From Bacillus marasmi (GTDB lineage Bacteria; Bacillota; Bacilli; Bacillales; Cytobacillaceae), in NCBI RefSeq assembly GCF_902168435.1, contig NZ_LR656166.1:124001-188000 (forward strand): a stretch of DNA of 64,000 bases, read 5' to 3'. Position 1 is the first letter of the stretch, and each line of letters starts with the position of its first letter. Below, piece by piece: positions 17,389 through 58,236 of this stretch. The position numbers and the translations under genes were made by a program. Under the pieces are notes generated by a model that was not told the DNA's origin, searched no databases, and saw only the letters and a program-made list of their open reading frames with translations.

Positions 17389-17413
17389 AGCTGATCGGAC
17401 AACCGAAGGAGTT
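17389..17413 (+). promoter_or_regulatory. Sulfur-leader RNA motif A (before tauE-type gene)
   Basis: The motif reads GCTGA-TCGG-ACAA-CCGA-AGGA. The 4-base stem TCGG/CCGA differs in sequence from the CTGG/CCAG and CTAG/CTAG stems of other copies but still pairs, which supports an RNA structure. Unlike the other five copies it is not followed by a terminator. Instead GAAGGAG becomes a ribosome binding site for a 12-codon frame (17419-17457) whose TGA overlaps the start of the exporter gene. Confidence 0.6.
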
Positions 17414-17418
17414 CCGCG

Positions 17419-17457
17419 ATGATAAAAAAGATTGTTTATGATGGAGGATTAATATGA
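17419..17457 (+). CDS. Possible 12-residue leader peptide before tauE-type gene
   Basis: ATG at 17419 follows GGAG by seven bases and opens MIKKIVYDGGLI, ending in a TGA that shares ATGA with the exporter start. GGAGG for the exporter lies inside it. This layout would couple exporter translation to the upstream motif. A frame this short can arise by chance. Confidence 0.3.
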   Translation: MIKKIVYDGGLI

Positions 17458-18368
17458 AAAAGTTAATCGTATTTGCATTTATTGGCTTTTTGGCACAATT
17501 GATTGATGGGGCACTTGGCATGGCTTATGGTGTTACATCTTCGTCATTGTTGCTGGCATTTAGTATTGCCCCTGCCGTCGCAAGCGCTTCTGTCCATTTA
17601 TCAGAGGTTGTTACGACAGCTGCTTCAGGAGTTTCTCATATAAAGTTTGGAAATGTTGATAAAAAAATAGTTTATAAGTTAATCATACCCGGTTCTGTTG
17701 GTGCATTTTTAGGTGCTACATTTTTGAGTAATATTCCAGGTGAGATAGCAAAACCATATGTATCGATTTTTCTATTATTATTAGGTGTTTACGTTTTATT
17801 TCGCTTTTTATTTAATTACAAACCAGCGGTCAACAATGGCCAGTCACCATTAACGAAGAAACAAGCAATTCCACTTGGATTTATTGCAGGTTTTATGGAT
17901 GCCACTGGTGGTGGTGGTTGGGGACCGATTGCTACACCAGTCTTATTAAGCAAAAATGGAATGGATGCTCGTAAAGTGGTGGGTACGGTTGATACAAGTG
18001 AATTTGCCATCGCCGTGTCAGCTTCAGTTGGTTTCTTTATTTCACTTGGCTGGTCTGACGTGAATTGGTTTTGGGTAATTGCCTTAGTTATTGGTGGTGT
18101 TATAGCCGCACCAATCGCAGCCTGGTTTGTCCAAAAAGTCCATCCGCAGCTTATGGGAGTACTAGTTGGAGGTTTTATTATCTTTGTAAACTCAAGAACG
18201 CTATTAATAACTTGGATTGAAAATAGTTCTGTATACCCTTATTTATACTCATTTCTTTTAATCAGTTGGTTTATCGCTATCGTGTTTACGTTTATTAAAA
18301 TCTCAGGAAAGAAGTTCACCTTGTTAAAAACTATCGTCCACAAAAATACGGGAAATGTTGCAGATTAA
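17454..18368 (+). CDS. TauE/SafE-family sulfite/sulfonate exporter
   Basis: A 304-residue membrane protein with about eight hydrophobic segments and the family's two-repeat arrangement. The glycine-rich signatures FLAQLIDGALGMAYGV near the N-terminus and GFMDATGGGGWGPIATP near residue 145 are typical of TauE/SafE (DUF81) carriers, which move sulfite, sulfonates or related anions. It is the first gene after the locus 1 promoter and precedes an Rrf2 regulator, YezD and MetY, so export of excess sulfite during organosulfur use is a reasonable inference. GGAGG lies seven bases before the ATG. Confidence 0.88.
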   Translation: MKKLIVFAFIGFLAQLIDGALGMAYGVTSSSLLLAFSIAPAVASASVHLSEVVTTAASGVSHIKFGNVDKKIVYKLIIPGSVGAFLGATFLSNIPGEIAKPYVSIFLLLLGVYVLFRFLFNYKPAVNNGQSPLTKKQAIPLGFIAGFMDATGGGGWGPIATPVLLSKNGMDARKVVGTVDTSEFAIAVSASVGFFISLGWSDVNWFWVIALVIGGVIAAPIAAWFVQKVHPQLMGVLVGGFIIFVNSRTLLITWIENSSVYPYLYSFLLISWFIAIVFTFIKISGKKFTLLKTIVHKNTGNVAD

Positions 18369-18408
18369 TGTAAAAAACTACTAAAAAATGAACAATTGCT
18401 TACGGTTA

Positions 18409-18433
18409 AAAGTCGACTGAATTAGTCGACTTT
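18409..18433. promoter_or_regulatory. Inverted repeat before the Rrf2 gene
   Basis: AAAGTCGACT and AGTCGACTTT form perfect 10-base arms around GAATT, ending 17 bases before the Rrf2 start. No T run follows, so an operator or mRNA hairpin is more likely than a terminator. An autoregulatory site for the adjacent regulator is possible. Confidence 0.5.
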
Positions 18434-18450
18434 AGAGAGAGAGGTAAATC

Positions 18451-18900
18451 ATGAAGATATCAAGTCGTGGAGAGTATGCGCTTAGAGCTTTAATCGTGTT
18501 GGGTCAGCATCGAGGTAGTGTAATGAAGATTGAAGAAATCTCAAAAAAAACCTTGGTGACCGTAAATTACCTTGAAAAAATATTACTTCAGTTAAAAAAG
18601 CAAAAGCTTGTTACGAGTAAACGTGGAATAAGTGGTGGATATCTCCTTCTAAAGGAGCCCAGTGAGATTATTATTGGCGAAGTTGTTCGTAACATTGAAG
18701 GACCATTATCACCAATGGGGTGTGCTTCAATAACAAAGTATGAGCCTTGTGAGCTGGAGGAAGGATGCTTATTAAAGCCACTTTGGTCACTAGTTAGAGA
18801 CACAATTGCTTTTGTACTTGAGCAGACAACGCTTGAAGACCTGCTCGAAAACCGGGTTAGATTATTGAAAGGAGAGGATTTTGTTGTCTTCAAAAAATAA
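18451..18900 (+). CDS. Rrf2-family transcriptional regulator with three cysteines
   Basis: A 149-residue winged-helix regulator (MKISSRGEYALRALIVLG start, wing GISGGYLL) of the Rrf2 family, which includes CymR, IscR and NsrR. Cys91, Cys100 and Cys106 (C-x8-C-x5-C) lie where iron-sulfur members hold their cluster ligands, although the spacing differs from IscR (C-x5-C-x5-C). Bacillus subtilis CymR lacks these cysteines. It sits in the sulfur operon between the exporter and YezD/MetY, so control of sulfur genes by cluster or thiol status is a fair inference. GAGAGAGAGG precedes the ATG. Confidence 0.85.
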   Translation: MKISSRGEYALRALIVLGQHRGSVMKIEEISKKTLVTVNYLEKILLQLKKQKLVTSKRGISGGYLLLKEPSEIIIGEVVRNIEGPLSPMGCASITKYEPCELEEGCLLKPLWSLVRDTIAFVLEQTTLEDLLENRVRLLKGEDFVVFKK

Positions 18901-19054
18901 AAAAATCGACCAAGAAGTTATCGATAAAATTGTAAGTTTTTTAGAAAATATTGAATATGGTACGATCCAAATTACGGTTCATGACTCTCAGGTAACTCAA
19001 ATTGAAAAAGGGGAAAAATATCGATTTTCCTTAAAAAAGGCAGCAAACAAGTAA
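18884..19054 (+). CDS. yezD: YezD/DUF2292 small protein
   Basis: A 56-residue protein, MSSKNKKIDQEVIDKIVSF followed by IEYGTIQITVHDSQVTQIEK, which is the DUF2292 (YezD) pattern. The TTG start lies inside the last codons of the Rrf2 gene, six bases after GGAGAGG, so translation is coupled. YezD proteins are repeatedly found beside sulfur-assimilation genes, but their biochemical role is not established. A second copy occurs at 37754 in sulfur locus 2. The small basic beta-rich fold would be compatible with nucleic-acid or metal binding; that is speculation. Confidence 0.85.
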   Translation: MSSKNKKIDQEVIDKIVSFLENIEYGTIQITVHDSQVTQIEKGEKYRFSLKKAANK

Positions 19055-19127
19055 CTAGATTAATTTTATTCTTAAATCATACTAATCCTATTAATTAACT
19101 ATAAAATAAAAAATTGGGGGAATTAAC

Positions 19128-57585: not shown

Positions 57586-57614
57586 TTGACAGTTGTAATT
57601 TTTGTTGTTAAAAT
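57586..57614 (+). promoter_or_regulatory. Promoter of sulfur locus 3 leader D
   Basis: TTGACA (57586-57591), 17 bases, TAAAAT (57609-57614), a near-consensus promoter. TAGGAATAAAT, like the GGAAT element of the other sulfur promoters, lies about 13 bases downstream of the -10. Confidence 0.75.
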
Positions 57615-57658
57615 CGACTAAACTGATAGGAATAAATGAAATTAAAGAACTTAAAAAT

Positions 57659-57725
57659 AGCTGACTGGAAAACCAGAGGCCTTAATTTTTACTCCAACCG
57701 TGGAGGGAAAATTAAGGCTTTTTTG
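57659..57725 (+). promoter_or_regulatory. Sulfur-leader RNA motif D with terminator
   Basis: The motif reads AGCTGA-CTGG-AAAA-CCAG-AGGC and continues into a terminator, GCCTTAATTTT and AAAATTAAGGC, enclosing a small CTCC/GGAG stem and followed by TTTTTT. No gene lies between this terminator and the next leader, so it would stop transcription early unless relieved. Confidence 0.7.
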
Positions 57726-57851
57726 ATTTCTTTGATTTATTAAACTTTTTTCACCCTTAAGATTGACGATTTGAAGATGATAATAATTAGGATTTGGTAT
57801 TAGAGAGTAAAGTGGAAGAAATAATAATTTGAAGTTTTTACCATAACTATA

Positions 57852-57879
57852 TTGACAATATAGGAATATATGGTAAATT
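57852..57879 (+). promoter_or_regulatory. Promoter of leader E, with GGAAT element
   Basis: TTGACA (57852-57857) and TAAATT (57874-57879) are 16 bases apart. The spacer ATATAGGAATATATGG carries the same GGAAT and GGT as the promoters at 17322 and 37596. Confidence 0.55.
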
Positions 57880-57975
57880 AAACATATAGTTTTAATCGGT
57901 TTTAAAAATTCACTAGGATTGCATCTTTCACAATGAAAATCAGGTTATGAATTGAAAAATAAATAACTATCTCCT

Positions 57976-58037
57976 GCCCACTGGTCGTCCAAGAGGCTCA
58001 CATGATTCAGTTTCTTACTGAAGTGTGAGCTTTTTTT
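57976..58037 (+). promoter_or_regulatory. Sulfur-leader RNA motif E with terminator
   Basis: The motif reads GCCCA-CTGG-TCGT-CCAAG-AGGC, with one extra base in the 3' arm. It runs into a terminator with outer arms GCTCACA and TGTGAGC, an inner CAGT/ACTG stem and seven T. Confidence 0.65.
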
Positions 58038-58134
58038 AAATCGTCAATGTGAAGGATCAATACACAGTGTAATCGAAATATAAACCGATTATAACTATAG
58101 GTATAGTAATAGTTAATTGAAGGGTGGTGAATTA

Positions 58135-58218
58135 ATGAAAATAATCATGAAATTACAAATGAATCTAGCCCAAGCCGACTGGTCATCCGAGAGGCTCACA
58201 TTTCTTAGGAACAACTGA
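58135..58218 (+). CDS. Possible 27-residue leader peptide overlapping motif F
   Basis: GGGTGGTG lies five bases before an ATG that opens MKIIMKLQMNLAQADWSSER and closes with TGA inside the loop of the motif F terminator. The peptide contains three Met codons in its first nine residues. A ribosome paused or released here could alter terminator folding. The other motif copies are not within such frames, so this may be accidental. Confidence 0.3.
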   Translation: MKIIMKLQMNLAQADWSSERLTFLRNN

Positions 58219-58236
58219 AATGTGAGCCTCTTTTAT
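58174..58236 (+). promoter_or_regulatory. Sulfur-leader RNA motif F with terminator
   Basis: The motif reads GCCGA-CTGG-TCAT-CCGAG-AGGC and merges with a terminator whose arms GAGGCTCACATTTC and GAAATGTGAGCCTC pair perfectly over 14 bases, then TTTTATTT. The GAGGC end of the motif is itself the start of the terminator stem, so motif and terminator cannot both form fully, as in an antiterminator switch. It is the last such leader before the ssuB-type gene. Confidence 0.7.

What the first reader, a model, noticed from the sequence alone, without database searches (positions are those of the whole stretch)
17389..58236. Recurrent RNA leader motif before sulfur genes: GCYGA, 4-bp stem, 4-nt loop, AGGC
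Six copies occur in the window at 17389, 20486, 37651, 57659, 57976 and 58174. Flanks are constant (GCTGA or GCCGA/GCCCA on the left, AGGC on the right, AGGA at 17389), while the stem changes as TCGG/CCGA, CTAG/CTAG and CTGG/CCAG, which keeps pairing by compensating changes. Five of six run directly into an intrinsic terminator whose 5' arm overlaps the AGGC end. All sit in the three sulfur loci (TauE-Rrf2-YezD-MetY, YezD-SsuE, SsuBCA-monooxygenases). The small hairpin overlapping a terminator resembles RAT sites bound by antiterminator proteins more than a large metabolite riboswitch. I do not recognise it as a named family.
Basis: partly seen in the sequence, partly recalled or inferred. Interest (0 to 1): 0.88.

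Follow-up and report, generated by a model that had tools for sequence, protein, structure and literature searches.

The report
RNA switch paired with YezD protein
Many Bacillus-like bacteria carry a small RNA hairpin fused to a stop signal in front of their sulfur genes, and it occurs almost only in genomes that also encode the tiny unstudied protein YezD, so YezD probably grips the hairpin to switch sulfur genes on.

Summary
The motif is real and conserved: a 21-22 nt hairpin with a 3-bp stem P1 (GCY/GGC), a 2x1 internal loop (NA/A), a 4-bp stem P2 and a 4-5 nt loop. P1's 3' strand is the base of an intrinsic terminator in 107 of 135 instances (2-8 of about 135 at shifted positions), so hairpin and terminator exclude each other. 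Downstream genes are largely sulfur genes: cysH, sulfate and sulfonate transporters, tauD, monooxygenases.

New here: the motif tracks the 57-aa protein YezD (DUF2292, homologous to Pseudomonas OscA). In 61 order-level genomes: both 34, YezD only 0, motif only 1, neither 26. In 200 class-level genomes: both 77, YezD only 4 (two of these show motifs under laxer filters), motif only 1, neither 118. cysH and SsuA do not track it this way. B. subtilis-group genomes carry it before ssuB.

Best reading: under sulfur limitation YezD binds the hairpin and blocks the terminator. It works like RAT/BglG antitermination but fits neither the RNA nor the protein of that family. Binding, signal and direction are inferred. 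No Rfam family matches.

The parts
17390..17410 (+). hairpin copy 1 (GCTGATCGGACAACCGAAGGA), leader of tauE-rrf2-yezD-metY; no terminator; AAGGAG inside it looks like a ribosome-binding site
   Evidence: (28.7 bits)
17454..18368 (+). TauE/SafE-family exporter
   Evidence: PF01925
18451..18900 (+). Rrf2-family (CymR-like) regulator
   Evidence: PF02082
18881..19054 (+). yezD-1, DUF2292 protein, proposed binder of the hairpin
   Evidence: PF10055 60 bits; NF033785 OscA 40 bits (cut-off 85)
19128..20447 (+). MetY, O-acetylhomoserine/O-acetylserine sulfhydrylase type
20487..20507 (+). hairpin copy 2 (GCTGACTAGAACACTAGAGGC)
   Evidence: 33.5 bits
20505..20545 (+). terminator stem-loop overlapping the 3' strand of P1 of copy 2
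20601..20819 (+). FbpA-like small protein
   Evidence: PF13076
37651..37671 (+). hairpin copy 3 (GCTGACTGGATCACCAGAGGC)
   Evidence: 33.4 bits
37669..37708 (+). terminator overlapping copy 3
37754..37924 (+). yezD-2, DUF2292 protein
   Evidence: PF10055 57.6 bits
38013..38564 (+). SsuE, NADPH-dependent FMN reductase
   Evidence: TIGR03567 above cut-off
57660..57680 (+). hairpin copy 4 (GCTGACTGGAAAACCAGAGGC)
   Evidence: 34.7 bits
57678..57719 (+). terminator overlapping copy 4
57976..57997 (+). hairpin copy 5, diverged, one extra nucleotide
   Evidence: not listed by the model search
57991..58035 (+). terminator overlapping copy 5
58174..58195 (+). hairpin copy 6, diverged, tandem duplicate of copy 5
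   Evidence: 20.2 bits
58189..58232 (+). terminator overlapping copy 6
58501..62628 (+). sulfonate-type operon: ABC ATPase, permease, NtaA/DmoA-type luciferase-like monooxygenase, SsuA/NMT1-type binding protein (ORF starts overlap, so true starts may be later)

Best explanation
The motif is the binding site of a protein-dependent transcription attenuator. A promoter fires; the nascent leader first makes the 21-22 nt hairpin (P1, NA/A internal loop, P2, 4-5 nt loop), then the terminator, whose base is built from P1's 3' strand. Left alone the terminator wins and transcription stops. When the cell needs sulfur, the small protein YezD (DUF2292) binds the hairpin, holds P1 shut, keeps the terminator base beside the U-tract from forming, and lets polymerase reach the sulfur genes. 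YezD acts in trans on several operons and in many genomes is made from a gene directly before one of its own sites. Shown here: the hairpin, its covariation, its overlap with terminators, the sulfur genes, and the near-perfect co-occurrence with YezD. Inferred: direct binding, the sulfur signal, and that binding means ON.
For: Covariation: 7 of 7 pairs with double-sided changes in A4, 98.5% of cells paired against 84.5% shuffled. Overlap with terminator: 107 of 135, controls 2-8 of about 135. Co-occurrence with DUF2292: 34/0/1/26 in 61 genomes and 77/4/1/118 in 200 (both / YezD only / motif only / neither). Of the four YezD-only genomes two do show motifs under laxer filters (best E 0.0101 and 0.0055), in each one beside DUF2292, while the eight YezD-less genomes searched in the same call have nothing below E 0.28; the other two have a truncated or very weak DUF2292 match. 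Controls in the same 61: cysH 34/12/1/14; SsuA family 30/19/5/7, p 0.33. Trans layout: 65 of 113 copies are over 10 kb from any DUF2292 gene or on another contig, in 24 of 35 genomes (59 of 107 in 23 of 34 without G003, which has no DUF2292); B. spizizenii yezD (L161, near 900.8 kb) has no motif beside it, while motifs sit near 1069 and 1071 kb, one before ssuB. Adjacency: in 52 of 80 named yezD loci a motif starts between 17 nt before and 63 nt after the yezD stop. P1+P2 (-5.3 to -7.3 kcal/mol) cannot compete with the terminators (-22 to -31) unaided. In two of five tauE leaders P1's 3' strand is predicted to pair into a hairpin that covers the ribosome-binding site (L122, L125), so closed P1 would mean ON there too. 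Homology to OscA, whose insertional inactivation made P. corrugata Cr(VI)-susceptible, in an oscA-sbp unit strongly overexpressed after chromate (passages of PMC2996968), fits a positive role in sulfur supply. yezD and ssuABCD are both in Table 1 of PMC3862929 (B. subtilis genes that differ between biofilm entry and serine starvation; passages).
Against: No binding or expression experiment exists here. Co-occurrence does not prove contact; YezD could be a co-regulated target or helper. The predicted YezD fold (helix plus beta hairpin, pLDDT 78.7, pTM 0.42) has no convincing structural match, so RNA binding is not supported by fold. One genome in the order set (G003, 570 contigs) has six motifs at E <= 0.01 and no DUF2292 found. 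YezD subfamilies do not match P2 types one to one. No motif was found beside the one proteobacterial DUF2292 locus tested (L252). 28 of 136 instances fail the strict terminator test. The window's tauE copy lacks a terminator, and whether the hairpin opens or hides its ribosome-binding site is unclear; the ribosome-site hairpin of L125 folds no better than shuffles.
Confidence: 0.68

Rival explanations
1. Another protein, not YezD, reads the hairpin; yezD is simply the most constant member of the regulon or a helper of the binder.
For: yezD lies within 1 kb of a motif in 37 of 47 cases, so shared inheritance explains part of the co-occurrence; no RNA-binding fold could be shown for YezD; G003 has motifs without a found yezD.
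Against: 65 of 113 motifs are far from yezD; the B. subtilis-group yezD loci searched have no motif beside yezD while the genomes carry motifs elsewhere; the other regulon genes tested (cysH, SsuA family) track the motif far less well.
Confidence: 0.16
2. YezD binds the hairpin but promotes termination under sulfur plenty (PyrR- or TRAP-like repression), e.g. by stacking P2 on the terminator.
For: P2 can stay folded beside the complete terminator in the predicted structure (37651).
Against: P1, which covaries, is incompatible with the terminator base; a repressor would not need to conserve a competing helix; OscA loss gives a defect that points to sulfur supply (passages).
Confidence: 0.1
3. 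It is a very small metabolite riboswitch sensing a sulfur compound.
For: Leader position, terminator overlap, and several sulfur operons per genome are typical of riboswitches.
Against: Only 21-22 nt with few conserved unpaired bases (mainly A5 and A18); no Rfam match; presence tied to one protein family.
Confidence: 0.05
4. The hairpin is an RNA processing or stability element, not an attenuator.
For: Stable stem-loops at 5' ends can protect transcripts (recalled).
Against: Terminator built from the same bases in 107 of 135; P1 covariation.
Confidence: 0.01

Closest known systems
RAT sites with BglG/LicT/SacY antiterminators
   Same: Short leader hairpin with internal loop whose 3' side overlaps the terminator; a protein is proposed to stabilise the hairpin and prevent termination.
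   Different: Here 7 bp with one 2x1 internal loop and 21-22 nt, against about 30 nt with two internal loops (recalled); candidate protein is a 57-aa DUF2292 protein, not CAT-PRD; regulon is sulfur, not sugars.
DUF2292 / YezD / OscA (PF10055, NF033785)
   Same: The candidate protein belongs to PF10055 and is homologous to OscA, which NCBIfam names sulfur starvation response protein.
   Different: No molecular function or RNA target is given in the passages I saw; YezD scores below the OscA equivalog cut-off (40 against 85 bits).
S-box (SAM) and T-box leaders of sulfur genes
   Same: Leader RNAs with terminators in front of sulfur genes of Bacillota (recalled).
   Different: Much larger, metabolite- or tRNA-dependent (recalled); Rfam, which holds such families, reports none at the sites scanned.
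CymR (Rrf2) control of cysteine genes
   Same: Same physiology; putative CymR motifs were reported before ssuB and cysH in B. cereus (PMC3519770, passages).
   Different: DNA-level repression at promoters; the hairpin would be a second, RNA-level layer.

Membership tests
Rfam families (release 15) | a match at the motif reaching the family's gathering score | tested here: not met
   Window: only ZMP-ZTP at 43403-43481. Six loci at E up to 1, two of them the window's own sites: one match far below its gathering score, on the opposite strand over the L015 terminator.
BglG/LicT RAT antitermination | leader hairpin overlapping the 5' strand of an intrinsic terminator | tested here: met
   107 of 135 instances
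BglG/LicT RAT antitermination | about 30-nt hairpin with two asymmetric internal loops (recalled) | tested here: not met
   21-22 nt, one 2x1 internal loop
BglG/LicT RAT antitermination | binder with CAT RNA-binding domain and PRDs (recalled) | tested here: not met
   candidate binder matches only DUF2292 in Pfam; that it is the binder is itself untested
DUF2292 (PF10055) | profile match over the curated cut-off | tested here: met
   60 and 57.6 bits against 22
OscA (NF033785 equivalog) | score over the equivalog cut-off of 85 bits | tested here: not met
   40 bits, E 2.9e-10: homologous, not the equivalog
ANTAR two-hairpin targets | paired hairpins with conserved hexanucleotide loops (recalled) | tested here: not met
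   single hairpin, 4-5 nt loops
protein-dependent antiterminator | protein-dependent readthrough in vivo or in vitro | not testable with these tools
   needs experiment

The most novel reading that the evidence does not exclude
DUF2292 (YezD/OscA) is a new family of minimal RNA-binding antiterminators that senses sulfur status and runs a sulfur-scavenging regulon throughout Bacilli, with both terminator and ribosome-binding-site versions of the switch; proteobacterial OscA would work on RNA too, explaining its role in sulfur starvation.
Probability: 0.3. Interest if true: 0.92.

Novelty: new variant of a known kind. Interest (0 to 1): 0.86.

Why it matters
It proposes a molecular job for DUF2292, a protein family whose Pseudomonas member OscA is described as a small protein of unknown function linked to sulfur starvation (passage of PMC2996968), and gives it a defined RNA target that can be tested at once: the five B. 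subtilis-group genomes searched have two strong motif sites each, one (read in B. spizizenii) before ssuB. If right, it adds an RNA layer to sulfur control in Bacilli and a very small RNA-binding regulator with a compact RNA site.

Tried and rejected
Chance: rejected for the exact and near-exact motif (reversed-pattern control 0 hits in 61 genomes against 26 motif places). At 3 mismatches the pattern is no better than its reversed control in the own genome (11 against 11), which is why the covariance model was used.

Named Rfam family: none.

Motif follows cysH or sulfonate uptake in general: rejected.

A code linking YezD subfamily to P2 type: read by eye; genomes with only the cysH-type YezD carry both CTAG- and TYGG-type motifs, so none seen.

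Exceptions to co-occurrence: G102 and G135 show motifs under laxer filters (best E 0.0101 and 0.0055); G076 and G086 have only weak or truncated DUF2292 matches and no motif at E <= 1. G143's single motif sits in a stretch in which I saw no sulfur gene by eye and may be chance. G003 has six motifs and no DUF2292 even with profile A6 (best E 0.6); its assembly has 570 contigs. G049 and G060, without DUF2292, have only weak model matches (E 0.34 and 0.16).

Proteobacteria: only one locus (L252, Novosphingobium plasmid) was tested, no convincing motif. I could not centre a genome search there.

Limits: the covariance model was built from motif hits and favours its own structure, so the pair counts lean towards it (A5: 4 of 7 pairs with double changes; its further pair types are not above shuffles). 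The 136 instances include weak matches (E up to 0.05), two from G049/G060 and one truncated 18-nt match; repeats of one place were merged by identical context. Terminator detection, DUF2292 co-occurrence and gene context do not enter the model. Promoter and GGAAT controls used single-letter shuffles. Genomes are related; Fisher values are not corrected for phylogeny. In some searches about 100 match-less genomes are not listed, so 'neither 118' is by subtraction. The two genome sets share at least six genomes. One search kept the best 80 of 264 relatives, all of the non-cysH type of YezD as far as seen. Six papers naming yezD with Bacillus were listed and passages read in five; none of these passages describes RNA binding. 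DUF2292 is in two papers, passages read in one. Viti 2009 (oscA) was not read; Mansilla 2000 (cysH) is not held.
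Full report
OBSERVATION. The six copies are present, three of them one base later than stated. Three fit GCYGA-N12-AGGC exactly, where 0.35 are expected in a shuffled window. The last two are tandem duplicates of each other with an extra nucleotide. The first lacks a terminator. cmscan at gathering scores finds only a ZTP riboswitch at 43403-43481 in the window. In six loci with motifs (two are the window's own sites, four from other genomes) it finds, at E up to 1, one match far below its gathering score, on the opposite strand over a terminator.

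ANATOMY. A strict pattern found 26 places in 14 of 61 genomes of the order, and its reversed control none. With 3 mismatches allowed the pattern equals its control in the own genome (11 and 11), so I went on with a covariance model (R1, 20 sequences). It found matches at E <= 0.01 in 35 of the 61 genomes. I collected 136 distinct instances, weak ones included. The structure is P1 (3 bp), an NA/A internal loop, P2 (4 bp) and a loop of 4 or 5 nt. In 117 distinct 21-nt sequences pooled from three searches, the three P1 pairs are formed in 110, 117 and 117 and the four P2 pairs in 113, 117, 117 and 116. All seven pairs have changes on both sides in A4 and four of seven in A5; the closing pair of the loop varies least (GC in 115 of 117). 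A18 is invariant and A5 kept in 114 of 117; the commonest loops are ACAA and TCAA. Because the model scores pairing, these counts lean towards the structure.

EXPRESSION PLATFORM. With a strict terminator definition, 107 of 135 instances (one of 136 too near an end) have a terminator stem starting at the motif end; at eight shifted positions 2 to 8 of 132-136 do. Over all 136, 108 pass: in 102 the outermost 5' base lies 4 to 1 bases before the motif's last base, in five on it, in one 3 beyond. P1 and the terminator base therefore cannot both form. The hairpin with P1 and P2 is worth -5.3 to -7.3 kcal/mol in three window copies, the window's five terminators -22 to -31. A factor is needed for the hairpin to win. 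57 of 136 instances have a sigma-A-like promoter in the 140 nt upstream (2.1 in single-letter shuffles); in the 36 that fit a stricter pattern the -10 ends 15-63 nt before the motif. Hence these motifs start leaders. GGAAT[AT], which I recall as part of the CymR box, is enriched upstream (43 against 14 in shuffles), so a CymR-type layer at the promoter is possible too. In two of five tauE leaders (L122, L125) the same P1 strand is predicted to pair into a hairpin that covers the ribosome-binding site; for L125 that fold is no better than shuffles. L067, another tauE leader, fails the strict test but shows a terminator-like hairpin by eye.

GENES CONTROLLED. 125 of 136 instances have a same-strand ORF of at least 45 aa within 700 nt. 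First genes by cluster, representatives named by Pfam: PAPS reductase 23, sulfate-binding protein 11, SsuB-like ABC ATPase 9, luciferase-like monooxygenase 8, DUF2292 6, SsuA/NMT1 6, FbpA 6, LysR regulator 5, TauE 5, TauD 4, an FAD-binding flavoprotein 3, PLP enzyme 3. The remaining 36 fall into clusters of two or one, among them SsuE, a flavodoxin/FAD reductase, Rrf2 and MetY (the last two named by eye) and several without an obvious sulfur role (short-chain dehydrogenase, GNAT, cation efflux, Cas3-like). The ORF calls are heuristic, several motifs stand in tandem before one gene, and the genomes are related.

THE PROTEIN PARTNER. In the same 61 genomes DUF2292 (PF10055) occurs in 34. Every one of them has the motif, one genome (G003, 570 contigs) has the motif without it, and 26 have neither (p 2e-16, uncorrected for phylogeny). 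PAPS reductase gives 34 both, 12 cysH only, 1 motif only, 14 neither; the SsuA family 30, 19, 5, 7 (p 0.33). In 200 genomes drawn from the class, DUF2292 is in 81 and the motif (E <= 0.01, strict filters) in 78: both 77, DUF2292 only 4, motif only 1, neither 118 by subtraction (p 3e-49, uncorrected). Two of the four exceptions show motifs with laxer filters, best E 0.0101 (G102) and 0.0055 (G135), and in each a motif (E 0.0101 and 0.0115) lies beside DUF2292; the eight DUF2292-less genomes of that call have nothing below E 0.28. The other two have truncated or very weak DUF2292 matches. The match also splits congeners: g3 has G006 with both and G030 with neither, g9 has G035 with both and G012 with neither.

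CIS AND TRANS. 37 of 47 DUF2292 genes have a motif within 1 kb, but 65 of 113 motifs lie more than 10 kb away or on another contig, in 24 of 35 genomes; leaving out G003, which has no DUF2292, 59 of 107 in 23 of 34. Among 80 named yezD loci (the best 80 of 264), 62 hold a motif at E <= 0.1, and in 52 one starts between 17 nt before and 63 nt after the yezD stop: yezD, then hairpin and terminator, then further genes. In the five B. subtilis-group genomes searched (B. spizizenii, tequilensis, inaquosorum, mojavensis, halotolerans) there are two strong motifs about 2.05 kb apart. In B. spizizenii one lies in front of an operon of an SsuB-like ATPase, SsuA (above its cut-off), SsuC-like permease and SsuD (above its cut-off) (the mechanical ATPase ORF starts before the motif, its true start is probably after the terminator). 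The other precedes a small FbpA-like gene between thiC and katA (named by eye). Its yezD lies near 900.8 kb, beside a Bax1-I family gene, without a motif, against motifs near 1070 kb. I did not read the B. subtilis 168 genome itself; PF10055 rings in B. subtilis as a control genome.

WHAT YEZD IS. 57 aa, PF10055, with homology to NCBIfam's sulfur starvation response protein OscA at 40 bits, under that model's cut-off of 85. Among 21 sequences of both subfamilies G27, Q40 and K46 are invariant; among 49 of the window's own type G27, I31, H34, D35, Q40 and I41. AlphaFold2 gives a helix and a beta hairpin with moderate confidence and no structural relative was found. For OscA I saw only passages of PMC2996968 and PMC3596284: insertional inactivation in P. 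corrugata 28 gave Cr(VI) susceptibility, and the oscA-sbp unit is strongly overexpressed on chromate. In B. subtilis a yezD deletion did not reduce viability under deep starvation (PMC6385201, passages), and yezD and ssuABCD both appear in Table 1 of PMC3862929 (passages).

MECHANISM. Shown: hairpin, covariation, exclusion with the terminator, sulfur regulon, co-occurrence with YezD in cis and in trans. Inferred: YezD binds the hairpin; binding holds P1 shut and gives readthrough; the signal is sulfur limitation. The direction rests on geometry (closed P1 is incompatible with the terminator base, and in two tauE leaders with hiding the ribosome-binding site) and on the OscA phenotype. I put 0.68 on this, 0.16 on another binder with YezD as companion, 0.10 on YezD as a termination promoter, 0.05 on a metabolite riboswitch.

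COMPARISON AND NOVELTY. It works like RAT/BglG antitermination but meets neither the RNA nor the protein definition of that family. In what I saw of the literature (ten searches; listings and passages; open-licence PMC only, so print elsewhere is not excluded) nothing describes the motif or an RNA role for YezD. I file it as a new variant of a known kind: protein-dependent attenuation with a new RNA site and, probably, a new binder family.

Noticed in passing
43403-43481 (+): ZMP/ZTP riboswitch (61.9 bits) upstream of a 2-hydroxyacid dehydrogenase-family gene at 43626-44825, not a purine gene by Pfam.
   Followed up: partly
20601-20819; L232 1552-1752; L016, L018, L022, L023, L094, L111: FbpA-like small basic proteins recur directly after the motif (PF13076 shown for the window gene and L023; the others by sequence cluster, L232 by eye), also in B. 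spizizenii between thiC and katA: a possible small-protein member of the sulfur regulon that Pfam names Fur-regulated.
   Followed up: partly
57660-58232: Three motif-terminator units stand in tandem before one sulfonate operon; L127 (genome G052) also has three motifs in a row before an SsuB-like gene. Tandem attenuators may sharpen the response.
   Followed up: no
17390-17490: The tauE copy overlaps AAGGAG followed by a possible 12-codon leader ORF ending at the tauE start; might be a translational version of the switch.
   Followed up: partly
L122, L125 (tauE leaders): P1's 3' strand is predicted to pair into a hairpin covering the ribosome-binding site instead of a terminator; the L125 fold is not better than shuffles.
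   Followed up: partly
L099 881-3307: A motif with terminator lies about 350 nt before a Cas3-like helicase gene (G008), an odd neighbour for a sulfur switch.
   Followed up: no
G000:C19:188051 and 190391 (just beyond the window end): Further motif copies, the first before a permease gene, the second before an FAD-binding flavoprotein with a ferredoxin-like partner named by eye (L103).
   Followed up: partly
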